Positions 11,450-31,631 of a DNA stretch of 64,000 nucleotides are shown here, one piece after another. Position 1 is the first letter of the stretch; each line of letters opens with the position of its first letter. The translations under genes and the position numbers were made by a program. The stretch lies in NCBI RefSeq assembly GCF_900489465.1, contig NZ_UEFQ01000013.1, forward strand, positions 620,001 to 684,000, given 5' to 3'. The DNA is from Aequorivita sp. CIP111184. Its GTDB lineage: Bacteria; Bacteroidota; Bacteroidia; Flavobacteriales; Flavobacteriaceae. Under the pieces are notes generated by a model, which was not told where the DNA came from, did no database searches, and was given only the letters and a program-made list of their open reading frames with translations.

Positions 11450-11458
11450 ATTTAATAT

Positions 11459-15943: not shown

Positions 15944-16018
15944 AAAATAAAAAATCTTAGCAGCTTTATAAAAAAACCTTTTTTTAAATTTTGAGATATG
16001 TAGTTATGTTGAAAAAAT

Positions 16019-16218
16019 AAACCCGTTCCAGCCCATTCCCACTCCATTGCATTTCGGGAAATGCGCTTCACTACATCGTCTTGGACACAATCCCAAAATT
16101 TTATTTATATATTCTTCGAAGAATAAACCTTGGAAGATTAAATTTTGAAATTGAGTCCGCTTGATCCTGCTGCTATTGAAGTTCTGAATTTCTAAGGAGC
16201 ATTTCAAAACGTTTCCAA
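16019..16218 (+). repeat. Right copy of repeat flanking the defence operon
   Basis: Same orientation as 10449-10650, with high similarity over the first 150 bases and the palindrome GCATTTC-GG-GAAATGC. It starts 75 bases after the stop of the STAND gene. A minus-strand open frame (16004-16222) covers it, but no equivalent protein is kept by the other copy, so I treat it as non-coding. Confidence 0.85.
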
Positions 16219-16239
16219 TCATATTTATAAATCCCTATA

Positions 16240-16371
16240 TCACGTTACCTTTCCGATAAAAGGTATAAAATTTAAAATTAGAGCACTGCATAACCGGTCG
16301 CAAGCTCCCTTTTATAAGTCCTTTTCTAATTTTAAATTTTAAAATGGAGCAGTATCGGAAAGGTAACGTGA
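16240..16371. repeat. MITE-like nested inverted repeat
   Basis: Outer arms of 19 bp are perfect (TCACGTTACCTTTCCGATA at 16240-16258 against its complement at 16353-16371). Inner arms of 16 bp are also perfect (16267-16282 with 16325-16340). No coding capacity. The form fits a miniature inverted-repeat element or a large recombination/hairpin site. No clear target-site duplication was found. Confidence 0.7.
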
Positions 16372-16494
16372 CGGCGCTATGGGAAGTAAATCGAGAATAG
16401 GATAAGGATAGTGTCAGTTTTGAGGGGCGAATTCTACTGTATTTGAGATTCTGCTATAAATCAAAAAGGAAAGGAAAACGCTCAAGATATAATA

Positions 16495-16525
16495 AGTAAA
16501 TCGTTTTGATTTGAACTATAAATAA
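16495..16525 (+). repeat. 31-bp direct repeat, left copy
   Basis: Matches 21004-21034 with one mismatch and the same orientation; weaker similarity extends about 15 bases upstream. The two copies bracket the 16.7-20.7 kb block of surface-protein genes. The rest of 16372-16627 shows no gene. Confidence 0.65.
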
Positions 16526-16627
16526 ATAGCTGTTTAAATTATTTTGAAAGTTTTCAGCATAATAATATAAGGCATATGAAAAGCACTACACATCCAGCAA
16601 TCCCCGATTTTTGAATAAATATTCTAT

Positions 16628-16661
16628 AAAATGGGATAAACTAAAAGGTTTATCCCATTTT
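16628..16661. terminator. Terminator after the T9SS protein gene
   Basis: A 14-bp perfect stem, AAAATGGGATAAAC with GTTTATCCCATTTT, around a 6-base loop, downstream of the minus-strand gene that ends at 16707. Confidence 0.8.
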
Positions 16662-16706
16662 GTATTACTTCTGAAAATTTCATATTCTACAAGAACTATA
16701 TGTTTA

Positions 16707-17678
16707 TTATTGCTTTATAAATTTTTTGGTAGCCGATCCTGTTTCGGTTTCTATTTTTATGTAGTAGATTCCGTTAGATAGGTTGGATATGTCTATTTGA
16801 TTTGTAGATAATGCTCCAATCACTTTTTGCCCAAGTGAATTGTAGATGCTGAAATTGTAATTGCTTAGTTGCGTCTCAATATTCAAAAATTCCGAAGCTG
16901 GGTTTGGGGAGATTTGGAAATTATTCTGTGTGAAATCCTCTATTGATAATGGTTGGGGCGTAAATCTGTAAACCATCCCGTCGGGTATGGCGCCTTGCAA
17001 ATAATCGCCGTCATAAAAATCACCTGCCGCTACAACAGCCACTGCGGGATTCGCAGGATCCCCCTCTACAACATATCCATTGTCCACCAATTCGCCCTCA
17101 TCAATATTTAAAGATATTGCCAAGGTAACCAAAGGACCTGAAATACCTTCAAAAGATTCTGATGGATTATTAATTTGGTTTGGACCATATCTATATTCAA
17201 TAATGTTTGATCCTTCATATAACCAGAGCTGGAAGTTCATAAAGTCGCTTTCTGTGGAATCATCAAGGAAACCAATATTGTTCCATTCGATTTTAAGGAT
17301 TTTGTTTCCTGGCGAACCCTCTGTTTTATAGGAGATATTGGATTGTGAAATTCCCGAACCAAGTCCTAAATCCGCTATATCCTGTGCTATCGGTGAAATT
17401 AGGGTTAAAATTCCAGAGTCGATTTGTTCGTTTGAAAGTTCTCCGCCAAAACTCCATTCCACAATATAAATAATATCAAAAGTGTGAGAACTTATCGTAA
17501 AATTAAATCCTAAGGGTATGGTATATCCCGGATCGTCCCAAACTTCGCCATTGTTAAGTGAAGTGCTGCCAACCAAATTCTGGTAAGCAATATTTTCGGT
17601 TTCAAACTCATAAACGCTCTGGGCATTTATAAAAATTGCACAAAGCAAAAACAACGGTAGAAGTAATTTCTTTATCAT
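16707..17678 (-). CDS. Secreted protein with T9SS type A sorting domain
   Basis: 323 residues. A signal peptide (MIKKLLLPLFLLCAIFINAQ) is followed by a beta-rich, acidic region without a family I recognise. The C-terminal domain (about 245-323) has SPNPASEFLNIE, then SIYNSLGQKVI, then LSNGIYYIKIET and KKFIKQ, the type IX secretion sorting signal. The protein is therefore exported across the outer membrane and probably attached to the cell surface or released. It has its own terminator and is followed, on the upstream side, by an operon of surface proteins on the same strand. Confidence 0.85.
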   Translation of the reverse strand: MIKKLLLPLFLLCAIFINAQSVYEFETENIAYQNLVGSTSLNNGEVWDDPGYTIPLGFNFTISSHTFDIIYIVEWSFGGELSNEQIDSGILTLISPIAQDIADLGLGSGISQSNISYKTEGSPGNKILKIEWNNIGFLDDSTESDFMNFQLWLYEGSNIIEYRYGPNQINNPSESFEGISGPLVTLAISLNIDEGELVDNGYVVEGDPANPAVAVVAAGDFYDGDYLQGAIPDGMVYRFTPQPLSIEDFTQNNFQISPNPASEFLNIETQLSNYNFSIYNSLGQKVIGALSTNQIDISNLSNGIYYIKIETETGSATKKFIKQ

Positions 17679-17796
17679 AATTTTAAAAATTTAATTTCTT
17701 AATTCATAGCACACAAATGTGCACTGAAAATAATTTATTCACTAATCTATTTATAGATATTAAGATGTAATTTGCAACTTTTAAAAAAAATAAGCG

Positions 17797-17832
17797 TATA
17801 AAGGGATAAACGAAAACACTTATCCCTTTATA
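17797..17832 (-). terminator. Terminator of the lipoprotein/beta-barrel operon
   Basis: A 13-bp perfect stem, TATAAAGGGATAA with TTATCCCTTTATA, followed on the minus strand by a run of eight Ts. Confidence 0.85.
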
Positions 17833-17849
17833 GATTTTGAAGTGTAACT

Positions 17850-18404
17850 CTACATTTTGTTTGAGTTTAAATTCAAACCAATATTCAGTTGTGCCATTAA
17901 TGGCCAAAAACCATTATTTCCATTAATATCGAAATAAAATTGTGGACCTAAATCGAACAAGAATTGAACATTTCCAAATTCTCTTTGAATGCCCCATGTT
18001 GGGCCTATTGCAATATCAACATCTGACTTCCTAATTACATTATCCGCAATAGAAGGTCCTCTTGAAATTATTCTTGCAGAAATAAAGTTGCCGGAATTAC
18101 CAGAAATACTTTTACCTTTTTCAACTCTCCTTTCGAAATTATAAAACTGCTTGAACTGTAAATCCACAAAAGGTGCTATTATATAAATGATTCCGTTTTC
18201 TTCGCCATAAACTAAGTCCGGATATGCACCATTAAATCCAACCCCAAGATTTGTTGAAAAAGTGCTATTTTTCGTAACGGGAACTTCAACCTCCACACCT
18301 GGATTTATAAAATTAACACGCCAAACTTTCTGAGTTGAAACTTCTTCCTGCCCTTGAGCCATGAAGATTGTGAAAAATAAAAATATAATTATTAAATTTT
18401 TCAT
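17850..18404 (-). CDS. Predicted outer-membrane beta-barrel protein, third gene of operon
   Basis: 184 residues with a signal peptide (MKNLIIIFLFFTIFMAQGQ) and alternating hydrophobic beta strands, ending in the barrel-like QLNIGLNLNSNKM. No specific family recognised. It starts nine bases after the previous gene and ends at a strong terminator, so it closes a three-gene operon (18965-20677, 18414-18962, this gene). Likely located in the outer membrane; function unknown. Confidence 0.6.
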   Translation of the reverse strand: MKNLIIIFLFFTIFMAQGQEEVSTQKVWRVNFINPGVEVEVPVTKNSTFSTNLGVGFNGAYPDLVYGEENGIIYIIAPFVDLQFKQFYNFERRVEKGKSISGNSGNFISARIISRGPSIADNVIRKSDVDIAIGPTWGIQREFGNVQFLFDLGPQFYFDINGNNGFWPLMAQLNIGLNLNSNKM

Positions 18405-18413
18405 TAGTTTATT

Positions 18414-18962
18414 TTAAAATTTTATTCCAAAAGAAGCTCCAAAGCTGGTGACTTCATAATAACCTTTTTCACCAACAAATACTGCTTCTTTAAATTTTTT
18501 GAAAATCTCCAAAACATATTCCAAATTCTCGTCTTCACCCAAGGTAATGCCTGCACCGATTTTTACAGGACGTCCTTCTACAAAAACATCTCCAATTTTT
18601 ACATTTTTACCCATTTGTAAAAATACAAAAGGAGAATTATCGAAACCGTGTTCGTGAAAATAGATACGCAAATCGCCTAAAATGGGCATCGACCAAAATG
18701 TTCTGTTTGAGTTCCAGTCAATTCCCAAGCCCGCAGATAAGGAAAGATAATCGAACAAAAAGATGCCGTGAAGGGTAGTCATTTCAACCGCCACTCCTTT
18801 CTGTATCTTGTCTTCACTGTCATTGCCGAAACGGCTGTCATAATTTCCATTTATGCCCATTGTTGTGACCGAGTTATAATTATCAGACCACCAACTATCA
18901 TTATCCCTTGATGTTTGAGAAAATGAAGAAAAAGACAGTAAAAAAAATATAAAAAATCTCAT
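18414..18962 (-). CDS. Predicted outer-membrane beta-barrel protein, second gene of operon
   Basis: 182 residues with a short signal peptide (MRFFIFFLLSFSSFSQ) and a beta-barrel pattern (GIFLFDYLSLSAGLGIDW, VKIGAGITLG) ending in SFGASFGIKF, a typical outer-membrane terminal strand. Its start lies two bases after the stop of the large lipoprotein gene, so the two are translationally linked. Function unknown. Confidence 0.65.
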   Translation of the reverse strand: MRFFIFFLLSFSSFSQTSRDNDSWWSDNYNSVTTMGINGNYDSRFGNDSEDKIQKGVAVEMTTLHGIFLFDYLSLSAGLGIDWNSNRTFWSMPILGDLRIYFHEHGFDNSPFVFLQMGKNVKIGDVFVEGRPVKIGAGITLGEDENLEYVLEIFKKFKEAVFVGEKGYYEVTSFGASFGIKF

Positions 18963-18964
18963 TT

Positions 18965-20677
18965 TTAATTTAATCCTACTTCTATTTTACTACCGTGCCA
19001 TACTCCATTTCTTTTCGCTACTCCATACATTTTCACTTTCATAGATTTTGGTAAGACCAACTGTCCAGCACCTCCAGAATATGAAAACTTATTATTATTT
19101 GCATTAAAACTTATCCCGACCTGGGCAGCACCGTCAAAATCAAATGTTCTTTCTTGATTTGAACAATTTGAGCAATTTGAATAATAAGATTTTTGTACGA
19201 AGAGTTTCCCATACCCTGGATGATTAGATATTAAAGTTATACCCTTTGGCATCTGGAAGTTATTATTATTAGTTAAACTTTTAAGTTGACTTACAGCATT
19301 CTTATATAACTCTTTCCAAAATAACTTATTTAAATTATCACTAGTCAACTGTTTATTTGCGAGACCCAGAGCATAATCAACTGAGTTGTTATTTCCATAA
19401 CTTTCAAAAATTAAGTCATCCCAAAAAACTCTTGGATATATATTACTACTTATAAAGGTTTCAGAACTTAAAAACGTATAAGGTGCATTTCCATTTGGAT
19501 AATTCCATATAGAAGTGTTCACATTATATCTAATATTTAAAGGTTTGTAGGCGTGTTTAAAATCAGTTTGAGTAATTTGACCTAATTTCGGTTGCAATAT
19601 TTTTGTGTAATCATATTCAAATTGAGCCATTTCAATCCCTGCAGCAACTATATTTGTGTCTTCTTGTCTCCAAATTCCGGTCCAACCCTTCTTTTGATGT
19701 TTTACTTTTGCACCGATGTGGTAAACCAAATAATAATTATAATTAAAAACTTTAGTTTTTACTCTTCTATCACTTTCATATTTATCTATACATATCTTAT
19801 TAGTCCCAAAAAGAGTTCCAAATAATCCATTTCGACTATCGCAAACACTTAAATTATCTAAATAAGGTTGTAACCCATCTAAAGGTTGAGTTTGGCCACC
19901 TCCACCGCCAGTACCGCCACCTCCGCCAGTACCTCCACCTCCACCTCCAGGAGCGCATCTATTTTGACTATATGGGTCTGTACTGCAACGAGCTATAAAA
20001 TAAAACAAAGTGCCATTTTCAAGGATTGTTTCACCAGTGTTAGGAATGTCACTTTCAACAACCTGCCTCGCTCCTTCGTCTGTGGGAACTAATAAATTTT
20101 TCGATATATTTTTTACTTCTAAATATTGGTCAAGTACGCTATAGTTATCAAGAGTCGCATAAAAAAGTCCAACATCCGTGTATTTATAAATAGTATTCCC
20201 AACTTGTATCTCTGCCTGTTCATTTAAAAAGGCAGAAAATGCTTCATCACCAATAACTTCTTCTAAATCGTCTATATCATCATAAATATCTCCTTCGGGT
20301 CTATTAAGGCCATATTCATTTGATAATCTTTCAATTCTTTTCTGATATCTCTCCAAGACTTTTTCTTCATTGGATTCCGTAACAGGAATTCTTAATGACG
20401 AAAAATCATCGTTGTAAAATTTATTCACGTATGTATAAATTTCATCATTAGATTCATCAGCATATTTTTTGAAGGTTTCCACAAAAACTTCCTTACTTGG
20501 GAAATACATTCTTCCGTTTACAACTCCAATTTCTTTATTTGAATCAGTACTTTGAGGTTTTTCTTCTAAATAATCATCTTCACATGATATCAGAATTGGT
20601 AAAGAAATAATAATTAAAAATTTAAAGAGTTTTAGACCTTCAAGCAGGTATTTTTTATTATTTAATGATTTTTTCAT
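18965..20677 (-). CDS. Large lipoprotein with glycine-rich linker
   Basis: 570 residues from the ATG at 20677 (an upstream in-frame ATG at 20707 gives 580). A signal peptide ends in the lipobox LPILISC, and the mature protein begins CEDDYLEEKPQS. The N-terminal half (to about 270) is acidic and may be helical. A spacer of repeated GGGGGT units (about 285-305) then links to a C-terminal half without a recognised domain; it contains a Cys-rich SNCSNCSNQ. The chosen start places a Lys-rich n-region before the hydrophobic core. It heads an operon with two beta-barrel proteins, which suggests a surface complex. Confidence 0.7.
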   Translation of the reverse strand: MKKSLNNKKYLLEGLKLFKFLIIISLPILISCEDDYLEEKPQSTDSNKEIGVVNGRMYFPSKEVFVETFKKYADESNDEIYTYVNKFYNDDFSSLRIPVTESNEEKVLERYQKRIERLSNEYGLNRPEGDIYDDIDDLEEVIGDEAFSAFLNEQAEIQVGNTIYKYTDVGLFYATLDNYSVLDQYLEVKNISKNLLVPTDEGARQVVESDIPNTGETILENGTLFYFIARCSTDPYSQNRCAPGGGGGGTGGGGGTGGGGGQTQPLDGLQPYLDNLSVCDSRNGLFGTLFGTNKICIDKYESDRRVKTKVFNYNYYLVYHIGAKVKHQKKGWTGIWRQEDTNIVAAGIEMAQFEYDYTKILQPKLGQITQTDFKHAYKPLNIRYNVNTSIWNYPNGNAPYTFLSSETFISSNIYPRVFWDDLIFESYGNNNSVDYALGLANKQLTSDNLNKLFWKELYKNAVSQLKSLTNNNNFQMPKGITLISNHPGYGKLFVQKSYYSNCSNCSNQERTFDFDGAAQVGISFNANNNKFSYSGGAGQLVLPKSMKVKMYGVAKRNGVWHGSKIEVGLN

Positions 20678-21003
20678 TTTTATATTTTGTAGATTAATAA
20701 TGCGCAAAAATCATTTAATTATATTATATAAAATAATCAAAAAAGTTTTTTTTATTAAAATTTTTGTAGGAATTTGCAACATTTCAATAAAGGAAAAACT
20801 GAAATGGGGGTGTTTCATTAGACATTTTATTTTCCTCTGAAATGGATATAGAAATTTCTGTTTTAAGATTATTTTAGGAGTGCGTCTTTTCTTTTGATAT
20901 TTCAGGAGCCTATTTGGGAAGGAAATGGAATAAATAATATTTAAACCCTTTTATTTTGTACAACTGCTTCTGTTGTAAATAAAAAAAACTCTCTGAATAT
21001 AAT

Positions 21004-21034
21004 AGTAAATCGTTTTGCTTTGAACTATAAATAA
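21004..21034 (+). repeat. 31-bp direct repeat, right copy
   Basis: Partner of 16495-16525 (one mismatch). The surrounding 20708-21250 is AT-rich and gene-free, with a small hairpin TACAAC...GTTGTA at about 20959-20977. Confidence 0.65.
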
Positions 21035-21123
21035 TCTTCCCTCTTTTGATTATTCTTTAAAGTTAAGAGGTAATTGATATTAAAAAAATAAAATGTTTAG
21101 CTATAAATTTTTGTTTTTTTCGG

Positions 21124-21200
21124 TTTACTTTTTTGGAGCGGAGCGGAAAAAATTTGTAAAGCAAGAGGGTAACACGCTGCGCGATGTTATGTTTTATAAA
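21124..21200. other. Purine-rich stretch with hairpin, possible mobilisation remnant
   Basis: Contains GGAGCGGAGCGGAAAAAA, then GTAACA (21169-21174) paired with TGTTAT (21185-21190) around a GC-rich loop. I have a vague memory of similar sequence near mobilisation regions of flavobacterial conjugative elements, but no relaxase is present. Weak. Confidence 0.2.
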
Positions 21201-21254
21201 TCACTTGTTTTTAGTGTTTTATAAATGTTTGCAAATTTGTTTTTTAGTAATTTT

Positions 21255-21308
21255 CCGTGAAAAAACTTCAAACAACCTATTAACAGGCAAATTTTTCACG
21301 GATTTTTT
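21255..21308 (+). terminator. Terminator-like hairpin facing the guide RNA region
   Basis: CCGTGAAAAA (21255-21264) and TTTTTCACGG (21292-21301) are perfect 10-bp arms with a 27-base loop, and a T run follows on the plus strand. It separates the gap from the minus-strand dCas12f/guide transcript. Confidence 0.5.
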
Positions 21309-21391
21309 CGTAAAATACTGATTCGCGAGTGGTAAAATGATTAATAATCTGCCCACAGTTTCGTTTTTGTTTTATAATAATTTACTCTCAT

Positions 21392-21498
21392 TTAAATAAG
21401 AGAGTCCACGCGTTGTATATGCTCTTTACATTTAGTGAGTGTTCTAAAGTGACCCCACCTTACGGGTGTACAAGCACCCTCGTTTCGCAATCAGTTTA
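21392..21498 (-). ncRNA. Candidate guide RNA of the dCas12f-like protein
   Basis: Begins right after the dCas12f stop on the same strand, where TnpB omega-RNAs and Cas12f guides usually lie. Read on the minus strand it holds a GGGTG-CTTGTA-CACCC stem, then ACTTTAG paired with CTAAA(T)GT around an 8-base loop, then a single-stranded AAAGAGCATATACAAC. The ending CAAC (at 21412) is like the 3' end of Cas12f repeats. The next 20 bases, GCGTGGACTCTCTTATTTAA (21411 down to 21392), would be the guide. No second repeat follows, so this is a single guide, not an array. The guide boundary is inferred, and a short hairpin (ACTCTC/GAGAGT) overlaps it. Confidence 0.55.
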
Positions 21499-22596
21499 TC
21501 ATTCGGCCAAAAGCTCAATGCCTGCCTTTTCAGCCTTATATTTTATTTTGATTATCAAATCGTAATAGCTCCAGTTCCTTAGAACAAATTTCTCAGCCTT
21601 GGCTATCCCGATCTTGTCCTTCTGGTTTACCAATATTAGCGTACCCACCTGATGTTTGATGCAAAAATCGATCAGCCTTTTGCTGTAAACATGGATACGG
21701 TGCCGTATATATTTATTTTCCTTTTGATGAAAGGAGTTCACGGCCTTTAATTTTCTTTTGGTCCCTTTACCCGATTTGGAAAAGGTTGCCCCTTCCTGTG
21801 CACGTCTTCTGGCTGCCTGTATGGCAAGCCTTCTGTACATAAACTCTTCCTTTGTGCCAATGGTCAACCTGTTGTTACCTGACTTCACGACAATTGGATA
21901 TTCCAAGGACAGCGAAGCTTCAGCTATTACTTCAGGTCTAAGGCAATGTTCATCCTTTTCAATTTCAAAGACCGGAAGCCAGAATATCTTGCCATCCCTT
22001 AACTTGATGTGTGAAGTACACAGCTTGGTCTCTCCCGCCACGACCCGTTCCAAAAGCTTTCGCTTGTCGGTAAAGTCTTTTCCTAGATAGGTTCTGAAGG
22101 GAATCTGGAACAGACTAAAGCAGAACGCATTTTTTTCATCATCATAGTGCAGTCCGCTTACCAGCTCTAAGCTGAACGGAAATGCCATATCCCTCCTGAA
22201 GTTCTTTAGGGAGCATTCGCCTTTCCAGTATTCCGGCCTATCCTTATTAAAGGAGGTTATCAGGGTCTTGTTAAGGGTGGACAATATGTTCGTTGGGATT
22301 TCGCCCTTAAACCGATCTGATACCACCCGATAGGTGGTATTGATACGGGAGCGTTGCAGAATACCCAATTCATCCTTTTTTTCGTCTCCCAGTTTATAGT
22401 GTATCCCTGCCGATAGATAGAGGAATTCCTTGATCATTTCCTGTACGTAAAGATGGGTAACGATGAGGTTGGCCGCCCTAAAGCACCTGTTCTGCCATTG
22501 GTACAGTGTATCCAGCGCTTCCTTCCGTTCTTCCTTGGTGGGGAGGTCAACCAATAGCTGGATCTTTCGGGTCAGTTTCATTGTAGCCTTTTCCAT
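21499..22596 (-). CDS. Nuclease-dead, truncated Cas12f/TnpB-like protein (dCas12f)
   Basis: 365 residues from the ATG at 22596, one base after the stop of the sigma gene (TGA-T-ATG), which implies coupled translation; longer upstream starts would overlap that gene out of frame. An N-terminal helical region (about 1-140) leads to a beta-rich WED-like part (CTSHIKLRDGKIFWLPVFEIE, 193-213). The RuvC-like region follows, with YRRLAIQAARRRAQ, a Lys-rich loop (274-285) and IRHRIHVYSKRLIDFCIKH. The RuvC-I Asp site reads SLEYPIVV (230-237), the RuvC-II Glu site reads LILVNQKD (320-327), and the protein ends at YKAEKAGIELLAE, before the zinc ribbon and RuvC-III Asp. It should bind RNA and DNA but not cut. 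Confidence 0.8.
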   Translation of the reverse strand: MEKATMKLTRKIQLLVDLPTKEERKEALDTLYQWQNRCFRAANLIVTHLYVQEMIKEFLYLSAGIHYKLGDEKKDELGILQRSRINTTYRVVSDRFKGEIPTNILSTLNKTLITSFNKDRPEYWKGECSLKNFRRDMAFPFSLELVSGLHYDDEKNAFCFSLFQIPFRTYLGKDFTDKRKLLERVVAGETKLCTSHIKLRDGKIFWLPVFEIEKDEHCLRPEVIAEASLSLEYPIVVKSGNNRLTIGTKEEFMYRRLAIQAARRRAQEGATFSKSGKGTKRKLKAVNSFHQKENKYIRHRIHVYSKRLIDFCIKHQVGTLILVNQKDKIGIAKAEKFVLRNWSYYDLIIKIKYKAEKAGIELLAE

Positions 22597-22597
22597 A

Positions 22598-23392
22598 TCA
22601 AGCCGATTTGGTTTGCAGTTGGTGTTCGTTCTGTGATAGTTTATAGGCGGCCATAAACTCGCTGTGCACTTCCTTTTGGGATAGGTTGAGCATTGTGGCA
22701 ATGGAATCAAAAGAGTACTTCCCTTCACATCTTAGTTTCAGTACCTCTGCCTGTTGCTCGGTCATAACCTTTTGAACATTCATTTTGATCATACTTTGCT
22801 TGGGTTCAAGCTTGTCCCCTTGGTCTATGACGTTCTTGATATCATCAATGGCTTTTTTTATATTGTTGCTGGTTTCTTTAATGCTCGTTCCCATAGCTTC
22901 GGCAATCGCCTTGTACTGGAAACCGTACTTTAGACATAGTTCTATCAAATGGCTGCTTTCGGTATTCAATAGGGGCAATACCTGTTTGATCCTATCGAAG
23001 TACTCTTGGTCCATATCCTGGAGTTTTTGGATCTCTGCCTCATTTAGGGGGTCATATCCCGCCATATAGTCCTGATAGTTTTCAAAACTCTCCAACGAAT
23101 GGACGTTTCTGGAAAACTTATTTTTTGGTCGGGTATAGTACGAGATACATTCCCTTTTCATCACAAACCGCAGAAAGAAGAAAATATGCTTTGGAGATTC
23201 TATAGTGTCCCTATGTATCCATAATTTTAAAAAAGCATCTTGCACCAATGATTCTATAACAAACTCATCATCGATCAACCGCTTGCCAACCCAAAAGATA
23301 TTTCTGCTGTGTTTGGCATAAATATCCGCAAAGGCGGAAGGACATCCTTTTTTTAAAAGTTCAAGATCAGTGTACGACATAAGATACCTCAT
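22598..23392 (-). CDS. ECF-type sigma factor with extra C-terminal HTH, partner of dCas12f
   Basis: 264 residues (start 23392; the second Met at 23380 gives 260). Sigma region 2 covers about 15-88 (FADIYAKHSRNIFWVGKRL, then LVQDAFLKLWIH and FFFLRFVMKRECISYY). Sigma region 4 is at about 132-190 (VLPLLNTESSHLIELCLKYG, FQYKAIAEAMGTSIKE). A second HTH-like segment (208-255; MTEQQAEVLKLRCEGKYS, then FDSIATMLNLSQKEVHSEF) extends beyond a normal ECF sigma factor. It is immediately followed by the dCas12f gene. No anti-sigma gene is adjacent. The pair is GC-richer than its neighbours, which suggests a separate origin. Confidence 0.82.
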   Translation of the reverse strand: MRYLMSYTDLELLKKGCPSAFADIYAKHSRNIFWVGKRLIDDEFVIESLVQDAFLKLWIHRDTIESPKHIFFFLRFVMKRECISYYTRPKNKFSRNVHSLESFENYQDYMAGYDPLNEAEIQKLQDMDQEYFDRIKQVLPLLNTESSHLIELCLKYGFQYKAIAEAMGTSIKETSNNIKKAIDDIKNVIDQGDKLEPKQSMIKMNVQKVMTEQQAEVLKLRCEGKYSFDSIATMLNLSQKEVHSEFMAAYKLSQNEHQLQTKSA

Positions 23393-23398
23393 TTAAAT

Positions 23399-23416
23399 TG
23401 GTGGTAGATACCACCA
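23399..23416. promoter_or_regulatory. 18-bp palindrome upstream of the sigma gene
   Basis: TGGTGGTA-GA-TACCACCA is a perfect palindrome seven bases upstream of the first possible ATG of the sigma gene. It is a likely operator for the sigma-dCas12f operon; the XRE gene at 23792 is a candidate binder. Confidence 0.5.
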
Positions 23417-23525
23417 TAATTAAATTGGATTTAATTTTTAAAACCTAAAGCGAGTCCTTATTATTGTTAAGAGAAGATAGCTTTGAAGAGGGTTGAGAAG
23501 TATGACCTTTTATAAAAATAAAAAA

Positions 23526-23765
23526 GGGCGTGGAGACTCAACTTATCTAGATAGAGGTACTGGTATACCGTGCAGAGATAAGAGAGCTCACGCCCCGGGT
23601 CGTGAGCCAATCTACTTATCATCTCTCTGCAAAAATTACCAGTTTTCTATCCAGAGACTCAAAGCGATGACTTCAATATTGTTAAATGAAGAATCGCAAT
23701 ATTAATAATTAAAGCTAAGATATAAAAAATAATTAATAATTCGGATTTCAGTCCGAATTTTATTA
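23526..23765 (+). ncRNA. Long imperfect hairpin with terminator, candidate noncoding RNA
   Basis: Five stacked perfect helices share one axis: GATAGA 23550-23555 with 23646-23651; ACTGGTA 23559-23565 with 23637-23643; TGCAGA 23571-23576 with 23626-23631; GATAAG 23577-23582 with 23615-23620; GCTCACG 23586-23592 with 23601-23607. A second hairpin follows (GCGAT...ATCGC, 23664-23697). A terminator-like stem at 23738-23759 (AATTCGGA/TCCGAATT) suggests plus-strand transcription. A 70-codon frame crossing it does not look like protein. It sits divergently from the sigma-dCas12f operon; role unknown. Confidence 0.55.
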
Positions 23766-23791
23766 TTTCATAACCGCTTTATTTGTTTTAA

Positions 23792-24013
23792 ATGAATCAA
23801 GCAAATCGAAAAATAGTAGAATTTATAAGGGATAAATGGGTGATTCCGATGGATAACAATAATTTGTTTGCCAAAGAACATTTTATTGACGAAAAGACTG
23901 TTCGACGAATTAGGGAAGATAATGAGTATCACATAAGTTTAATTACTATTATGAGAATTTGCGAAGCAAAGAATTTAAAACTTAGTGAGTTCTTTAAAAT
24001 GGTTGGAATATAA
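23792..24013 (+). CDS. XRE-type helix-turn-helix regulator
   Basis: 73 residues: FIRDKWVIPMDNNNLFAKEH, then FIDEKTVRRIREDNEYHISL, then ITIMRICEAKNLKLSEFFKM. This is the five-helix Cro/C1 domain, where 'KTVRRIRE' would be in the recognition helix. It starts just after the terminator of the structured RNA candidate and reads away from the sigma-dCas12f operon, so it may control one or both. It has no effector or dimerisation domain beyond the HTH. Confidence 0.75.
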   Translation: MNQANRKIVEFIRDKWVIPMDNNNLFAKEHFIDEKTVRRIREDNEYHISLITIMRICEAKNLKLSEFFKMVGI

Positions 24014-24257
24014 GTATATATGTTCCTTTGCGTGTGCTTTCTCCATCGGAATGCTTTTTTACTAAAAATCATTATATTCGGCATTATCCCTAATATTTAA
24101 ACATTGCGCTTAAGTTTCTCCTTTTATTTTCCAAACCAAATATTATTAGAGCCATTATTTTAAAAAAACGCAAAATAAAATATTTTTTATGCAACTATTG
24201 CTTAGCAGGCTACATTGAATTATAAAAGGAATGATTGTAGGAGTATAATTAGATTAT

Positions 24258-24470
24258 ATGAAATTAAAAAAACAAATGTCTGAATTAACCATTAAGTAGA
24301 TTATAATTTTAATTTTTGGTGGAATTGCGACTTTAATTTTCGGTAAATTAATATTACATAAGGAATCAAGCAGTTTTCGTTTTGTACTTTATTCTATTCT
24401 TTTTAGAATTATACAACATAGATATGACAATGTTCAAGGTTTCTTTGTTAAACAAAATATGTTTATTTAG
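24258..24470 (+). pseudogene. Possible small membrane-protein gene with in-frame stop
   Basis: One frame reads MKLKKQMSELTIK, then TAG at 24297-24299, then IIILIFGGIATLIFGKLIL and about 38 further residues to a stop at 24468. The hydrophobic stretch after a charged start looks like a real membrane anchor broken by one nonsense codon. Family not recognised; chance is not excluded. Confidence 0.3.
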
Positions 24471-24690
24471 TGAAACTTTATTATTTTGTATAATTCTCCT
24501 TATATCTACATTTTAAATTATTCTTTTCTCATAAATTTTTAGAAAATAAATCAAAAATTATGGGAGGAAATTAATGGAACCCTTACTGATAAAGGAATTT
24601 AAACGTCTCGTTAAATTTTTAGCTTCACTTTAACTTTTTTTTGGTTGTTCAAATTTAAAGACTATATTTGGAACTCTCCCCTATTGATTT

Positions 24691-24725
24691 ATTCCTTTAC
24701 GGAAAGCCGTAATTAGGAATTTTTA
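24691..24725 (+). terminator. Terminator-like hairpin
   Basis: ATTCCT and TTACGG pair with CCGTAA and AGGAAT around an AAAG loop, followed by TTTTT on the plus strand. Confidence 0.55.
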
Positions 24726-25063
24726 CTTTTATATACATTCGAAATTGATTTTGTATTGATGTCTAATATAGACACAGTTCAATTTTAAAGCTCTCGCGTA
24801 TACGCTTAGGTGTCCGCAAGCTATGTAACTATTTTTTAAAGTATTATTAATTCAAAAATATAAATATGACATCGGAGGAAACACTTTGGAAGGCGGAAAA
24901 AGTCACTATGTGACTGACTCCTTATCGATATAATTATTTTATAAGGATAATTTTATCTTAAGAACTAATTAAATAAAATAACTATTAACAAATACAAAGG
25001 CTGGATTAAATTATTCCATTACAGCAGCCATAAGCACTTAAGCACTGGGAATTTTAAAATGAT

Positions 25064-26236
25064 ATGAAAAGTATCCTAAAATATAGTTTACTGGTTGTTT
25101 TTTTACAACTCTTTTCTTTTTGTTCGTCCGATGAAAAAATTAACGAGCAAGCAACGCCCGAACAGGTTAATTTTTTAGATAAAGCTTATATCGAAAAAGC
25201 TACTGTAGATGAGAAGTTGGAATATAGAAGATTTCACTTATTAAATTTAGCTACTTGGCTTTCGCACCATAATAATGAGGTTAGGGGATTGGTTCAATCT
25301 TATAATAAAAATAATTCACAACAAGAGATATTTAGTGTGGAAAGTTTAATTAACGAGTTTAAAAAAAGTGGAAACGTGATTTCACCCGAAATAGAAGCAT
25401 CCTTGAACACTTCATTAGCAGCTTTCCGTAATTTAGATGGTGAAGACTGGTATCCATATATTCAATATGAAAGGATGATCGAGGATGCTAATAAACAACC
25501 CTATGACGATTCAAAACCACTATATGCTATGGAAGATTACGAGAATAATGAAGAAATAGCTGTGGGTTATCAAGAAAATTCAGATGGCGATTTGGAAGAG
25601 ATTAACGAAAAGCTTACGCCAGAAGTTGTGGGCGAGGAAGATGATATTATTGTTATTGGAATAGGTGTTTGTCCCATTGCAATAGAAGGTGAACCTTGTG
25701 TTTTTCAAACAAGTGTGCCAGATCCCCCAGGAAGTTTTTTCAAAGTTGACATTGGAACTATGAAAGTAAAAGCGCATAAAGAAGTATACCCTTTTCGTTC
25801 TGATTTAAGTTTTACAGGATTTTTTGAACCTACTCTACCTGCGAATAGTGGTGATTGTGGACAACCAATGTTTCGTTCAGTAAATTGTTATGACCCAGAT
25901 GGAAGCAATATCGACCAATATCACAGGAGTTGGATTTCTAACGGGGATACCAAGACACAAAATTATAAAATAAAATCTCAGCCAACTAGCACTAATGATG
26001 ATATTATTATTTATGTTATTTTTGAACACGATTCGTGGCCTGCAACAATCCGAACAGCTACACTTACGTTTCCCAATGGTATTGGTAGGAATATAATCTA
26101 TCGGTCCTGGCAAACGAAATATGATTCCCGGACTGTTTCTATGGATCCAGGCAATTCATATGGACTTCCTTATGCAAACAACGTAGTCGTTAATAATAGC
26201 GAGATTGAATATAATTTAAAAGTAAGAGCTAATTAA
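25064..26236 (+). CDS. Lipoprotein of unknown function
   Basis: 390 residues. The signal peptide ends in the lipobox LFSFC (MKSILKYSLLVVFLQLFSFC), and the mature protein starts CSSDEKINEQ. An N-terminal helical part (about 30-150) contains RRFHLLNLATWLSHHNNEV. An acidic linker (160-200) and a beta-rich C-terminal part with four Cys follow. Family not recognised. It is directly followed by a beta-barrel protein gene. The arrangement of lipoprotein plus barrel repeats that of 17850-20677, although I see no obvious sequence similarity between the two lipoproteins. Confidence 0.65.
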   Translation: MKSILKYSLLVVFLQLFSFCSSDEKINEQATPEQVNFLDKAYIEKATVDEKLEYRRFHLLNLATWLSHHNNEVRGLVQSYNKNNSQQEIFSVESLINEFKKSGNVISPEIEASLNTSLAAFRNLDGEDWYPYIQYERMIEDANKQPYDDSKPLYAMEDYENNEEIAVGYQENSDGDLEEINEKLTPEVVGEEDDIIVIGIGVCPIAIEGEPCVFQTSVPDPPGSFFKVDIGTMKVKAHKEVYPFRSDLSFTGFFEPTLPANSGDCGQPMFRSVNCYDPDGSNIDQYHRSWISNGDTKTQNYKIKSQPTSTNDDIIIYVIFEHDSWPATIRTATLTFPNGIGRNIIYRSWQTKYDSRTVSMDPGNSYGLPYANNVVVNNSEIEYNLKVRAN

Positions 26237-26285
26237 TTAAACTGGGGCATTGTTTAAATATTCAATGCCCCTAAATATTCTGTAT

Positions 26286-26948
26286 ATGAAAAACTTATTC
26301 CTACTTATTATTTTTGCAACTTCTACTTTTACCTATTCCCAAATAGAAGAAAGAAAGGGCAAACTCTTTTTTAAGATTGGGTCTGAATATCGAATTACCC
26401 CTTTGCCTTATGATGGAAGTAAAATAGATCAGAAGATACCCGCGGATATAGATGTACAAAATTCAGGCGTAGCCTTTCACTATGGGTTTGATTATTTCAT
26501 TACCAAAAACCTAAGTTTTGGATTTAATAATTCTTTTAGGTATGATGTGCTAATCAGAAATGTAAATGAAATAGACCAAGAAAATGGCTTTCAAAAAACA
26601 GATAAAACGTTAATTGTTGGAGGTCATTTATATTTAGATTACCACGTTAAAGTGTTCAAAAATTCAGAGCTTTTTGCCCGTGTGGGACCGTCTTTGCTAA
26701 ACGGTGGCACGGAATATATGAATAAGACTACTTTTTATGATAATCAAGGTAATATTTTAGGTAGTTCATTTAGCAATGAAACATTAGAGTTTTTTGCGAC
26801 TAATATCGCAATTGGCTATAAAAGGCAAAAAGTAGAGTTGTTAGTAGGTTTATATTCTTCGAGCACTTCCAACTATTTTGACGAAACTGAAAGTTTAAAA
26901 ATTCCTTATATAAACATTACCTATACTATTGGAAAAATGTGGAAATAA
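26286..26948 (+). CDS. Predicted outer-membrane beta-barrel protein
   Basis: 220 residues from the ATG at 26286, chosen because MKNLFLLIIFATSTFTYSQ is a clear signal peptide; an upstream ATG at 26250 adds 12 residues before it. Beta strands alternate along the length (GVAFHYGFDYFITKNLSFGF, IAIGYKRQKVELLVGLYS), and the protein ends INITYTIGKMWK. It lies 49 bases after the lipoprotein gene and before a terminator, so the two probably form an operon. Confidence 0.65.
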   Translation: MKNLFLLIIFATSTFTYSQIEERKGKLFFKIGSEYRITPLPYDGSKIDQKIPADIDVQNSGVAFHYGFDYFITKNLSFGFNNSFRYDVLIRNVNEIDQENGFQKTDKTLIVGGHLYLDYHVKVFKNSELFARVGPSLLNGGTEYMNKTTFYDNQGNILGSSFSNETLEFFATNIAIGYKRQKVELLVGLYSSSTSNYFDETESLKIPYINITYTIGKMWK

Positions 26949-26975
26949 GCAATAGCACCTGTTTTTTAATTATTA

Positions 26976-27006
26976 AAAACCCTAGACTGATTTGTCTGGG
27001 GTTTTT
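26976..27006 (+). terminator. Terminator of the second lipoprotein/barrel pair
   Basis: AAAACCCTAGAC pairs with GTCTGGGGTTTT (one G-T pair), followed by a T run. Confidence 0.85.
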
Positions 27007-27122
27007 CTATTTAAATTATTTTCCTAAATAAATCAAAAAATTTTAAAAGTGTCTCTTCCAATTATTTTTTTTCATTAATATTTACTGTAAATAAATAAAT
27101 AGAGTATTACCATTGATTAAAT

Positions 27123-27130
27123 TATCTTTG
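27123..27130 (+). promoter_or_regulatory. -7 promoter box of the FG-GAP gene
   Basis: TATCTTTG matches TAnnTTTG, 40 bases before the ATG at 27171. No clear -33 element. Confidence 0.45.
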
Positions 27131-27170
27131 CAAAAAAAAGTTAATATCCTCTATTAAAATTTGTTAGGAA

Positions 27171-30100
27171 ATGAGTATAATTAAATTTTTCTTTATTGTT
27201 CTATGTGTTAATTTGTCGAATGCTCAGATTAATTTTCAAGAAAACATTATAGATTCAAATATTATGGATGGCCCAAAAGCTATTTATGCTGCGGATTTAG
27301 ATGGCGATGGTGATATGGATGTATTATCGGCATCCTCATCTAATAATAAAATCACCTGGTACGAAAATACAGACGGACAAGGTTCTTTCGGCATACAACA
27401 TATCATTACAACTACAGCAGAAACTGTTCAGTCAGTATTTGCCATTGATTTGGATGGAGATGGGGACCTGGATGTGTTGTCTGCTTCTCAATCAGATAAT
27501 ACAATAGCCTGGTATGAAAACACAAATGGTTTAGGAGCTTTTGGAGGAAAAAATGTAATTTCATCTAACGCAGATACAGCCAAGTCTGTTTATGCAACAG
27601 ATATTGATGGTGATGGTGATATGGATGTGTTATCCGCTTCTTTTAATGATGACAAAGTGGCGTGGTATGAAAATGTTGATGGTTTGGGTAATTTTGGGAG
27701 TGAAAACATTATTACGACTTCTGCGAATGGGGCACAGTCTGTTTATGCGGCAGATTTAGACGGAGATGGGGATATGGATGTCTTGTCAGCTTCCTTTAAT
27801 GATTATAAAATAAACTGGTATGAGAATACAGATGGACAAGGTTTTTTTGGACTACCACGAGTAATTGTAGGAACTCCAAATGATTTTAAAACCTGTGTGT
27901 TTTCAGCCGATTTTGATGGCGATGGAGATATGGATGTTTTATCTTCCTCATGGCAAGGCTCCAAGAGAATAGCTTGGTACGAGAATACGGATGGACAGGG
28001 AAATTTCAGTGTGGAAAATGTAATAACCAACAATGTTGCAAATGCAACCTCAATTTTTGCCAGTGACATTGATAATGACGGAGATATGGATGTTATATCT
28101 GCCTCCCAAACGGACGATAAAATTGCTTGGTATGAAAATACCGATGGACAGGGTAGTTTTGGAGTCTTACAGTCTATTTCGACTAATGCTGATGGTGCTC
28201 AGTCTGTTTTCGCAGCCGACATAAATGGTGATGGTGCTATGGACATAGTAGCTGCTTCCTATAGCGATCATAAAATATCATGGTTTAAAAATCTAGCAAT
28301 ATTAAATAATGAGATAAGTGGAAATTTAAAACTGGATGTTAATTCCAATGGTTGCGATAACAATGATATTAGTGCGGCAAACTTATTGATTAAAACTAGT
28401 GACGGAACTAATACTTTGTCAACTTTTAGTGCAAACAATGGAAACTACAAGTTATTTCCTGGTGAAGGTACATTTACTACAGAAATTGTGCAATTACCTG
28501 CTCATTACATTTCAAGTCCAATAACTCAAACATCTACTTTTGTTGGCTTGGGTAATACTGACAATGCTAACTTCTGTTTACAGCCCGTAGATGTAATCAA
28601 TGATTTAAGTATTGCAGTATATCCTATAATTAATGATCCGCGGCCAGGTTTTGACACGTCTTATCAATTAGTATATAGAAATCTAGGAACAACGCAGTTA
28701 AATGGTGATGTTTTATTTCAATTTAATAGTGATAAGATACAATTTTTAGGTGCCAGTGAACCTGTAGATACACAAACTGCAAATACCCTAAGTTTTAATT
28801 TTTCAAACTTGAATCCATTTGAAATAAGAACTATTGATTTAGATTTTAATGTGTTTCCACCACCTACCACCTCTAATGGGGATGTTTTAATTTTTACAGC
28901 TACTGTTAATCCTGTAGTTGGTGACATTACTGAAGAAGATAATGTATTTCAATTAGAACAGACAGTAGTTGGCTCTTATGATCCCAATGATATTTCTGTT
29001 CTTGAAGGTGAAGAAATATATTTAGATGAAGCTGATAATTATCTCCATTATATTATACGCTTCCAAAATACCGGAACTGCATCGGCGATTAATGTAAGAA
29101 TAAAAAATGTTTTAGATGCAAATCTAGATTGGGCAACAATACAATTAGAGAATATAAGTCATACGAGCAGAGTTGAAATCACTAATGAATCTAATGTAGA
29201 ATTTATATTTGAAAATATTAATTTACCTGATTCAACAAGTAATGAACCAGAATCCCATGGATATATTCAATATAAAATTAAGCCAATAAGTGCGATAAAT
29301 ATTGGAGACTCAATGTCAAATAGTGCAAATATCTTCTTTGATTTTAACCCTCCAGTGTTGACTAATACGGTAACCACAACTATAGTTGAATTTGTTCCTG
29401 TGGAAGCATCGGAACCTGCGAATTTGCAAATTTGTAATGAAGAAAATTTTGATGTTTTCGATCTAACTCAAAATTCGGAAGCAATATTAGGAACGCTTGA
29501 CCCCAATAATCATGAAATCAGTTTTCACATTTCTCAGAGTGATGCCAACAATGACCTTAATCCGATTGTTAATTCAAGTTCCTATACAAATACATCAAAT
29601 CCACAAGCCATTTACGCTCGTTTGGAAAGAATAACTGATAGAGAGTTCGACACAACAAATTTTGACTTGATAGTTGATTTGCAACCGGAAATTTTACCTA
29701 TAACGGATTTAATTGTATCGGATGTTGATAATGATGGATTCGAAACGTTTGACTTGACTATTAAAATACCTGAAATACTTGGTGCACAAACAGGAATTGA
29801 TATTACTTTTTATGAAACAGAAATAGATGCTTTGAATGGAATTAATCAAATTGTATTGCCAGAAGCTTATATAAATATTACAAATCCACAAGAAATATTT
29901 GCTCGCTTAGTTAATTTGACAACTTCTTGCATCAGTGTTAACAGTTTCAATATTTTTGCTGAACCAGTTCTAGGCATGGAGGATCTAGATTTTAAATCTA
30001 TAAAGATTTTTCCCAATCCTGGAGAAAGTACAATTTACATCTCATCGAACATTCCAATTATAGGATTGAATGTTTTTAATCAGCTTGGACAGATTATTTT

Positions 30101-30224
30101 AAGTTTAGAAAACAAAAAGGGGATCAATTCTTTTTCTATCGATCAATTTTCGAAAGACGTATATATCTTAAAGTTGATTGATGAAAACTCAAATGTTATT
30201 ATAAAAAAAATGATTAAGAACTAA
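27171..30224 (+). CDS. Large FG-GAP/VCBS repeat protein with T9SS sorting domain
   Basis: 1017 residues. A signal peptide (MSIIKFFFIVLCVNLSNAQ) is followed by eight FG-GAP/VCBS repeats (about 35-385), each with a Ca-binding loop of the type DLDGDGDMDVLSAS and a KITWYENTDGQG segment, which form a beta-propeller. A middle part (about 600-740) matches the conserved SYDPNDISV...YIIRFQNTGTA domain found in Bacteroidota surface proteins. The C-terminus (about 940-1017; IFPNPGESTIYI, VFNQLGQIIL, VYILKLIDEN) is a T9SS type A sorting domain. It is a large cell-surface or secreted protein, perhaps for adhesion or binding. It is the last cargo gene before the integrase. Confidence 0.88.
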   Translation: MSIIKFFFIVLCVNLSNAQINFQENIIDSNIMDGPKAIYAADLDGDGDMDVLSASSSNNKITWYENTDGQGSFGIQHIITTTAETVQSVFAIDLDGDGDLDVLSASQSDNTIAWYENTNGLGAFGGKNVISSNADTAKSVYATDIDGDGDMDVLSASFNDDKVAWYENVDGLGNFGSENIITTSANGAQSVYAADLDGDGDMDVLSASFNDYKINWYENTDGQGFFGLPRVIVGTPNDFKTCVFSADFDGDGDMDVLSSSWQGSKRIAWYENTDGQGNFSVENVITNNVANATSIFASDIDNDGDMDVISASQTDDKIAWYENTDGQGSFGVLQSISTNADGAQSVFAADINGDGAMDIVAASYSDHKISWFKNLAILNNEISGNLKLDVNSNGCDNNDISAANLLIKTSDGTNTLSTFSANNGNYKLFPGEGTFTTEIVQLPAHYISSPITQTSTFVGLGNTDNANFCLQPVDVINDLSIAVYPIINDPRPGFDTSYQLVYRNLGTTQLNGDVLFQFNSDKIQFLGASEPVDTQTANTLSFNFSNLNPFEIRTIDLDFNVFPPPTTSNGDVLIFTATVNPVVGDITEEDNVFQLEQTVVGSYDPNDISVLEGEEIYLDEADNYLHYIIRFQNTGTASAINVRIKNVLDANLDWATIQLENISHTSRVEITNESNVEFIFENINLPDSTSNEPESHGYIQYKIKPISAINIGDSMSNSANIFFDFNPPVLTNTVTTTIVEFVPVEASEPANLQICNEENFDVFDLTQNSEAILGTLDPNNHEISFHISQSDANNDLNPIVNSSSYTNTSNPQAIYARLERITDREFDTTNFDLIVDLQPEILPITDLIVSDVDNDGFETFDLTIKIPEILGAQTGIDITFYETEIDALNGINQIVLPEAYINITNPQEIFARLVNLTTSCISVNSFNIFAEPVLGMEDLDFKSIKIFPNPGESTIYISSNIPIIGLNVFNQLGQIILSLENKKGINSFSIDQFSKDVYILKLIDENSNVIIKKMIKN

Positions 30225-30384
30225 TTAAATTTCTTGGAGAAATTTTACGATGCTTTGATGTTTAAAAAAATAAAAGTTTCATTAGTTTTTTTAAGATGCC
30301 GAAATACTTGGAATATATCTACTAAAAGATATTAGGGATCCATTACAATCCTCGAAGGATAAACTCTGAAACAGCGAAATTTTT

Positions 30385-31596: not shown

Positions 31597-31631
31597 AATG
31601 CATTGATTTTACAATATAAAGATAATTAAAT

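What the first reader, a model, noticed from the sequence alone, without database searches (positions are those of the whole stretch)
21392..23392. Sigma factor coupled to a nuclease-dead Cas12f/TnpB-like protein: probable RNA-guided transcription module
Seen: an ECF sigma gene and a Cas12f/TnpB-like gene share one operon with a single base between stop and start. The Cas12f-like protein lacks recognisable RuvC-I Asp and RuvC-II Glu (SLEYPIVV and LILVNQ at the expected sites) and ends before the zinc ribbon and RuvC-III. A guide-RNA-like sequence follows at once. No transposase, Cas1/Cas2 or array is present. Known, from memory: a 2025 report described Bacteroidota sigma factors that work with dCas12f and a guide RNA to start transcription at guide-matched sites with a minimal 5'-G motif. 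Inference: this is a member of that class, carried here as island cargo.
Basis: partly seen in the sequence, partly recalled or inferred. Interest (0 to 1): 0.95.

Follow-up and report, generated by a model that had tools for sequence, protein, structure and literature searches.

The report
Guide-RNA-directed sigma factor with predicted targets
This stretch of a Flavobacteriaceae genome carries a sigma factor paired with a disarmed Cas12f protein and its guide RNA, a known kind of RNA-guided gene switch, and the guide resembles a conserved RNA leader found before nutrient-uptake genes and before the switch itself.

Summary
At 21395-23392 (minus strand) lie an ECF sigma gene, one base, a 365-aa Cas12f homologue without RuvC-I Asp, RuvC-II Glu, zinc ribbon or RuvC-III, then a guide RNA. 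Relatives have solved structures (PDB 9n9c, 9n9m, 9n9q: nuclease-deactivated Cas12f, gRNA, DNA, RpoE), so this is a new member of a known kind, on a 25.7-kb tRNA-Leu island. Found here: the guide resembles the 5' terminator arm of a ~180-nt structured leader, absent from Rfam, upstream of its own sigma gene and of SusC/SusD operons across Flavobacteriaceae. In 31 of 54 genomes with leader and guide, the two agree at 13 or more of 16 positions (shuffled guides: mean 0.006). Guides of some other members, including the nearest relative of the solved protein, fit a second site nearer SusC. The leader has two exclusive folds, both with compensatory changes. Proposed: dCas12f-gRNA-sigma starts transcription between the terminator arms, bypassing attenuation of SusCD and of itself. 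Shown: parts, conservation, match. Inferred: activation, bypass. In this genome the match is imperfect (14 of 16; the SusCD leader only with a gap).

The parts
22598..23392 (-). ECF sigma factor (264 aa), partner of dCas12f
   Evidence: Pfam sigma-70 regions 2 and 4; PDB 9n9q_C RpoE, profile E 2.2e-130; alignment A3 of 24 sequences
21499..22596 (-). nuclease-dead Cas12f (365 aa), no RuvC catalytic residues, no zinc ribbon, no RuvC-III
   Evidence: PADLOC Cas12f, PDB profile 9n9c E 2.7e-217, Foldseek 9n9m E 3.2e-49, alignment A2 of 30 sequences
21412..21485 (-). guide RNA scaffold
   Evidence: model R2, 87.7 bits (the window is one of the 33 sequences of the model); conserved in relatives
21395..21411 (-). 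guide, GCGTGGACTCTCTTATT
   Evidence: among 34 distinct guides selected for starting GCGTG, positions 6-16 are 79-97% conserved, falling to about 45% by position 20
23517..23698 (-). structured leader (attenuator-like) upstream of the sigma gene
   Evidence: profile and model hits; fold z -4.03; pair counts for two alternative folds on 29 sequences; no Rfam match
23577..23593 (-). predicted dCas12f target: 5' terminator arm GCGTGAGCTCTCTTATC, preceded by G at 23594; 14 of the first 16 positions agree with the guide
23526..23547 (-). 3' terminator arm GATAAGTTGAGTCTCCACGCCC
   Evidence: sequence; terminator fold
23520..23525 (-). T-run after the 3' arm
   Evidence: sequence; a T-run of 4 or more near the 3' end in 121 of 126 leaders
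6021..31814 (.). tRNA-Leu integrative island that carries the module (direct repeats 6021-6092 and 31743-31814; integrase 30385-31596)

Best explanation
It is a sigma-dCas12f-gRNA transcription module. The gRNA encoded right after dCas12f guides the complex to DNA upstream of SusCD operons and of its own operon, in most members at the sequence that also forms the 5' arm of a leader's terminator (about 16-17 nt behind a 5'-G), in some at a second site nearer SusC. The sigma factor brings RNA polymerase, and transcription starts downstream of the R-loop. At the leader site that is between the two terminator arms, so the RNA lacks the 5' arm and cannot form the terminator, whereas default transcripts from the leader's own promoter would be attenuated. 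Shown here: the genes, the gRNA, the leader, its two alternative folds, its place before SusC and sigma genes, and the guide match across genera. Known for relatives: dCas12f-gRNA and dCas12f-gRNA-DNA structures and an entry that also holds RpoE. Inferred: binding in this host, activation, start position, bypass, positive autoregulation.
For: Solved relatives. gRNA scaffold and dCas12f in the same 13 of 299 genomes. Leader in all 13 against 43 of the other 286 (Fisher p 1e-10); leader elsewhere than at the own operon in 10 of 13 against 43 of 286 (p 2.7e-6; genomes are related, so both are optimistic). Leader in 42 of 44 distinct genomes reached through dCas12f loci (two of the 44 are known from partial copies only). 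Anchored guide-leader agreement of 13 or more of 16 in 31 of 54 genomes, shuffled guides mean 0.006, maximum 1; base before the match G in 28 of the 31. Free scan of 900 nt from the leader start with a 5'-G required: 37 of 54 genomes reach 13 of 16 (32 at the leader arm), shuffled guides mean 0.9, maximum 2 in 20 rounds. Of 126 non-redundant strong leaders among those fetched, 70 have SusC within 2.6 kb downstream, 36 the dCas12f-type sigma, 20 neither. Own genome: second leader at G000:C35:71936-72094 upstream of a SusC/SusD pair. Rod fold: 13 pairs with changes on both sides; terminator fold: 6; no shuffle of 500 as high. The 3' arm starts 46-51 nt into the target (median 47; located in 93 of 126).
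Against: In this genome no site matches the guide perfectly: own leader 14 of 16, mismatches at positions 6 and 7; the SusCD leader reads GCGTGAGTAACTCTCTTATTT and matches only with a 3-nt bulge. A genome scan at up to 3 mismatches gives 18 hits, as many as the reversed control (18); one of these, in a 323-codon open frame and behind T, differs from the guide at 2 positions of 17 against 3 for the leader. 23 of 54 genomes fall below 13 of 16 at the leader, 17 of 54 in the wider scan; Echinicola, G333, G100, G316, G317, G331 and others have no good site there. Some members use the second site, where terminator bypass does not apply. Permuting leaders among genomes does not lower the match (644 observed, mean 645.7), so there is no genome-by-genome co-variation beyond a shared consensus. 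The leader is common without dCas12f (43 of 56 leader genomes), so its main control must be something else.
Confidence: 0.58

Rival explanations
1. The module is an RNA-guided sigma system, but SusCD leaders are not its main target here; the likeness of the window's guide to the leader reflects autoregulation only, and the other targets are sites with partial matches that I did not recognise.
For: In the window's genome the SusCD leader does not match without a gap; 17 of 54 genomes have no good site even in the wider scan; 11 of 55 sources hold several gRNAs, so more targets are likely.
Against: Ulvibacter (G063) has no leader hit before its sigma gene but one elsewhere with 15 of 16, though the SusC hit behind it is weak on a short contig; in same-genus G254 the guide fits a SusCD leader (15 of 16) better than its own leader (13 of 16); the different guide of the Flagellimonas group also fits a site before SusC, behind G.
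Confidence: 0.2
2. The guide works at the RNA level: the gRNA pairs with the 3' terminator arm of the leader transcript and prevents termination (a trans-acting antiterminator), with dCas12f as carrier.
For: The guide is by construction nearly complementary to the 3' arm; median duplex energy -18.75 kcal/mol.
Against: The guide follows the 5' arm without gaps and G stands before it; the complement of the 5' arm pairs better in 103 of 114 guide-leader pairs, median -25.4. A dCas12f-gRNA-DNA complex is solved for the family.
Confidence: 0.1
3. dCas12f-gRNA sits on the leader as a roadblock and represses SusCD and its own operon, as TldR proteins do; sigma acts mostly elsewhere.
For: The target lies inside a leader that has a sigmaA-like -7 box TAnnTTTG at one fixed position in 99 of 126 leaders (consensus from passages of PMC9723704), so it is probably transcribed from upstream.
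Against: The tight sigma-dCas12f operon in 45 of 48 intact loci and a solved entry holding both kinds of chain point to joint action.
Confidence: 0.1

Closest known systems
dCas12f-gRNA-sigmaE RNA-guided transcription system (PDB 9n9c, 9n9m, 9n9o, 9n9q; described, from recall, in a 2025 preprint that I could not read)
   Same: 365-aa nuclease-dead Cas12f (75% identity to 9n9m), RpoE-type partner, gRNA, G before the predicted target
   Different: Guide is of the GCGTG type; the guide at the locus whose protein reads like the solved chain (L045) is different (TTGTGGGATATACGC). Carried on a tRNA-Leu island. The leader-attenuator target is proposed here; whether the published work names it is unknown to me
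TldR (TnpB-like nuclease-dead repressors; Wiegand 2024, seen only as a reference and in passages of PMC13418256)
   Same: RuvC-dead TnpB/Cas12 homologue with a guide RNA acting on transcription
   Different: TldR represses, as those passages say; here a sigma gene is in the operon and the protein is of Cas12f type
Cas12f nucleases (Al3Cas12f 9nzo, CnCas12f 8hr5, AsCas12f 7wju)
   Same: Fold and sequence profile
   Different: Catalytic residues, zinc ribbon and RuvC-III missing here; no CRISPR array noticed
Intrinsic attenuators and riboswitches (general knowledge)
   Same: Housekeeping-type promoter box, two exclusive folds, terminator arm plus T-run, outer-membrane transporter genes downstream
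   Different: No meaningful match among 4227 Rfam families (two chance hits far below gathering score); no ligand known; the 5' terminator arm doubles as the predicted guide target

Membership tests
sigma-dCas12f RNA-guided transcription system | Cas12f homologue without RuvC catalysis | tested here: met
sigma-dCas12f RNA-guided transcription system | Homology to the solved dCas12f over the full length | tested here: met
   9n9c profile positions 1-364 of 365; 9n9m 75% identity
sigma-dCas12f RNA-guided transcription system | ECF sigma gene in the same operon, related to 9n9q RpoE | tested here: met
   one base apart; E 2.2e-130; 45 of 48 intact loci
sigma-dCas12f RNA-guided transcription system | gRNA encoded directly downstream | tested here: met
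sigma-dCas12f RNA-guided transcription system | genomic target behind 5'-G (feature recalled) | tested here: inconclusive
   family level: G in 28 of 31 matching genomes; window genome: G present, but 14 of 16 only
sigma-dCas12f RNA-guided transcription system | RNA-guided transcription start without promoter motifs (feature recalled) | not testable with these tools
   needs 5'-end mapping
TldR repressor | nuclease-dead TnpB that represses a guide-matched gene | tested here: inconclusive
   the protein scores in Cas12f and below the TnpB cut-off; repression cannot be tested
Type V-F CRISPR-Cas | active RuvC nuclease | tested here: not met
Type V-F CRISPR-Cas | CRISPR array and adaptation genes | not tested
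   one scaffold hit in the window and no such gene noticed among the ORFs listed; no dedicated array or Cas1/Cas2 search was run
Rfam RNA families (leader) | match to a curated family | tested here: not met

The most novel reading that the evidence does not exclude
A near-invariant gRNA guide, shared across many genera, reads the terminator arm of a widespread two-state leader RNA, so that one guide makes a mobile sigma factor the trans-activator of a whole class of SusCD operons and of itself, by starting RNA synthesis inside the attenuator loop and so leaving the terminator's 5' arm out of the transcript. Other members have swapped the guide for a second site nearer SusC, and array-bearing genomes would serve several SusCD operons with several guides.
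Probability: 0.45. Interest if true: 0.82.

Novelty: new member of a known kind. Interest (0 to 1): 0.62.

Why it matters
RNA-guided transcription activation is known from structures, but what such systems control in their hosts is, as far as I could find, open. A conserved guide, named DNA elements and a named gene class (SusCD nutrient import) make that question testable by deletion, 5'-end mapping and ChIP. The leader itself, present in 56 of 299 Flavobacteriaceae genomes searched and in no Rfam family, looks like an unrecognised cis-regulator of SusCD operons.

Tried and rejected
Guide matches inside the window: only 11-13-nt exact words that look like chance. Whole-genome guide scan with up to 3 mismatches: no enrichment over the reversed pattern (18 against 18); the three weak hits inspected lie in long open frames. 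Flagellimonas-type guide: a 19-nt pattern scan found, apart from its own copy, nothing in 3 of 4 genomes and one 3-mismatch site in the fourth; I first read this as no target, but that site lies behind G between a leader and SusC, and similar sites occur there in other Flagellimonas-group genomes. Echinicola-type guide: no enrichment over control; of the two sites that came up for inspection one is another gRNA copy and the other has no SusC behind it. CCTTCCC-type guides (Salegentibacter, G100): a hairpin of that kind stands before sigma in G100 and G318 and before one SusC in G334, but pattern counts were not clearly above control in three of four genomes, and G334 reaches 13 of 16, G333 12, G100 11 in the wider scan: lead only. 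The 13 of 16 of G319 is A/T-rich and may be chance. Genome-label permutation: negative. Divergent dCas12f in the 43 leader genomes without it: none at E 0.001 with a 30-row profile (the tool warns that an empty answer without a positive control shows little, and the 13 positives were found with the single protein). Papers: the primary work on this system was not found in the open library, so whether the leader target is in print is unknown. An attenuator before SusC was looked for in one search and in passages of PMC9723704, where the passages shown name a cobalamin riboswitch before a TonB-dependent transporter.

Full report
What is there. On the minus strand, an ECF sigma gene (23392-22598), one base, a 365-aa Cas12f-like gene (22596-21499) and a guide RNA (scaffold 21485-21412, guide 21411-21395) form one unit.

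The protein. PADLOC Cas12f matches at E 2.1e-50; the NCBIfam TnpB model matches below its cut-off. A profile of 30 sequences finds PDB 9n9c 'Nuclease-deactivated Cas12f', 365 aa, over positions 1-364 at E 2.7e-217, and Cas12f nucleases next. The protein of L045 (Allomuricauda taeanensis) reads like that chain in the alignment printed. An AlphaFold2 model (pLDDT 78.7, pTM 0.54, so moderate) has as best Foldseek match 9n9m 'dCas12f-gRNA-DNA complex (partial R-Loop)', 75% identity, E 3.2e-49, TM 0.63, rmsd 9.2. The RuvC-I Asp position is Ser228, invariant in 30 sequences; the RuvC-II Glu falls in a missing segment; the C-terminal part of the nucleases is absent. Of 55 loci found in genome contigs, 48 encode an intact protein ending at about residue 365; four are fragments and three carry stops in a straight translation.

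The sigma factor. A profile of 24 sequences finds 9n9q_C 'RpoE' at E 2.2e-130; the next chain is at 1.5e-5. In 45 of the 48 intact loci the sigma gene ends 1-2 bases before dCas12f; exceptions are L052 (120 bases), L066 (10) and L054 (contig end). So the window pair is a member of the family whose structures are solved. The statements that these systems start transcription without promoter motifs at guide-matched sites behind a 5'-G, and that the start lies about 46 bp from that G, are recalled from a 2025 preprint that I could not read.

The guide RNA. The scaffold is highly conserved (33 sequences, 84% mean identity, 16 predicted pairs, 4 with changes on both sides). A covariance model of the scaffold without the guide hits exactly the 13 of 299 family genomes that hold the protein; in two of these (G021, G266) the protein is only a fragment or broken. 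In the window and 54 loci it gives 76 hits, 49 of them followed by a (G)GCGTG- or GTGTG-type guide; 43 of these 55 sources have at least one such guide and 11 hold more than one gRNA. Among 34 distinct guides selected for starting GCGTG, positions 6-16 are 79-97% conserved and conservation drops to about 45% by position 20, which suggests a guide of about 16-18 nt.

The leader. 29 of the 55 loci have it right upstream of sigma, 89-168 nt from the first possible start codon among the 36 non-redundant cases. A covariance model (29 sequences) finds it in 56 of 299 Flavobacteriaceae genomes, up to eight hits each. It is in all 13 dCas12f genomes against 43 of 286 others; counting only leaders elsewhere than at the own operon, 10 of 13 against 43 of 286 (related genomes make the p-values optimistic). 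Among 44 distinct genomes reached through dCas12f loci, 42 have it. Of 126 non-redundant strong leaders among the regions I fetched (not all hits were fetched), 70 have a SusC gene within 2.6 kb downstream (HMM made from SusC proteins of the same set; Pfam confirms SusC and SusD for the window genome's copy), 36 the sigma gene, 20 neither; among these, by eye, fecI-like sigma genes and small proteins of unknown kind. A sigmaA-like -7 box TAnnTTTG occurs at one fixed position in 99 of 126, and a T-run of four or more near the 3' end in 121 of 126. The consensus is from passages of PMC9723704. The window's own leader has TAATATTG there, one letter off.

Two folds. The rod fold pairs the guide-like arm with sequence upstream of it (95.0% of cells paired, 13 pairs with changes on both sides, 0 of 500 shuffles as high on either; the count of further pair types does not exceed shuffles, 91 of 500). 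The terminator fold pairs the same arm with the 3' arm before the T-run (98.3% paired, 6 pairs with changes on both sides, 0 of 500). Both structures were derived from these sequences, which favours them in the slide control. Rfam has no meaningful match. This is the anatomy of a transcription attenuator; its signal is unknown.

Guide against leader. In 54 genomes with at least one leader and one guide (a few with only a remnant of dCas12f), the best anchored match reaches 13 of 16 in 31 and 15 of 16 in 24; with shuffled guides the mean is 0.006 genomes and the maximum 1 (500 shuffles). Two further genomes had no leader (G311, G322), and one was not held (L032). The base before the match is G in 28 of the 31. 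The match is no genome-specific co-variation: permuting leaders among genomes gives the same total (644 against mean 645.7). What is conserved is a common guide and a common arm.

A second site. Checking a 3-mismatch hit showed that the different guide of the Flagellimonas group (TTGTGGGATAYACGC) fits a site between leader and SusC: G|TTGTGGGATACACGTTAC in G329 and close variants in G303, G304, G308, G310 and G315, most of them behind G. In a free scan of the 900 nt from the leader start with a 5'-G required, 37 of 54 genomes reach 13 of 16: 32 at the leader arm, and G310, G328, G329 (13, 13, 15) at this second site, G334 (13) at a CCTTCCC hairpin, G319 (13) at an A/T-rich site; shuffled guides give a mean of 0.9 and a maximum of 2 genomes in 20 rounds. 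G310 is the genome of L045. So guides of two kinds fit two sites in SusC upstream regions, which supports SusCD as the regulon and shows that the terminator arm is the common but not the only site.

The window's genome. Its guide fits its own leader at 14 of 16 (mismatches at positions 6 and 7) and its SusCD leader (C35:71936-72094, about 550 kb away) only with a 3-nt bulge. In same-genus G254 a SusCD leader fits at 15 of 16, better than its own leader (13); in Ulvibacter (G063), which has no leader hit at the sigma gene, a leader elsewhere fits at 15 of 16, but the SusC hit behind it is weak (E 3.6e-6) on a 3.5-kb contig. A genome scan with mismatches shows no excess over control. So the target assignment rests on the family, not on this genome alone.

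Mechanism. In 93 of 126 leaders where it could be located, the 3' arm starts 46-51 nt into the target (median 47). Any start downstream of the R-loop and before the end of the 3' arm gives an RNA without the 5' arm, which cannot form the terminator; if the recalled 46-bp rule holds, the start would fall at the beginning of the 3' arm. Hence: default transcription is attenuated, RNA-guided transcription is not. Start position, activation and bypass are inference. The antisense rival is less favoured because guide and 5' arm agree without gaps and the duplex with the complement of the 5' arm is stronger in 103 of 114 pairs.

Setting. The module lies on a 25.7-kb island between tRNA-Leu and a 72-nt copy of its 3' part, with a tyrosine integrase. 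Verdict: the system is a new member of a known kind; the predicted SusCD targets are the part worth testing.

Noticed in passing
window 23517-23698 and many loci: The leader is a widespread structured RNA (56 of 299 family genomes) often upstream of SusC genes, with or without dCas12f; in some genomes it precedes what look by eye like fecI-like sigma genes or ~110-aa proteins of unknown kind.
   Followed up: partly
L197, L282, L290, L295 (G329), L207 (G310), L169, L184, L192, L208: A second conserved element between leader and SusC, (G)TTGTGGGATACACGTTAC, fits the Flagellimonas-type guide.
   Followed up: partly
L066 11123-12019, L062 11020-11524, L064, L060, G144:C11, G100:C1: Several gRNAs in a row; in L062 and L064 the stretch between gRNAs encodes the end of dCas12f again, so arrays seem to grow by duplication of the gene end plus gRNA.
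   Followed up: partly
L070, L071, L072, G144:C18, G162:C12, G021:C1: Pieces of the C-terminal part of dCas12f followed by a gRNA scaffold: decayed or cut-off copies, or orphan guides (L070 begins near a contig end).
   Followed up: no
L008 and L063 upstream of sigma; L337 and L299 upstream of SusC: A hairpin element with CCTTCCC recalls a further guide type in G100, G333 and G334.
   Followed up: partly
G342 contigs C2, C3, C6, C11 (L304-L307): Several weaker-scoring leader copies, two at the same offset (1264) from a contig start, as if part of a repeated element.
   Followed up: no
window 10449-16169: A Cap4-nuclease-like gene (below cut-off) and a 1494-aa protein with weak STAND/AAA matches, bracketed by a 104-nt direct repeat (88%), inside the island.
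   Followed up: no
window 6775-8037: HipA-like protein next to the tRNA-Leu end of the island.
   Followed up: no
window 21004-21034 and 16495-16525: A 31-nt direct repeat (97%), one copy beyond the gRNA end, the other beyond the end of a gene with a secretion sorting tail.
   Followed up: no
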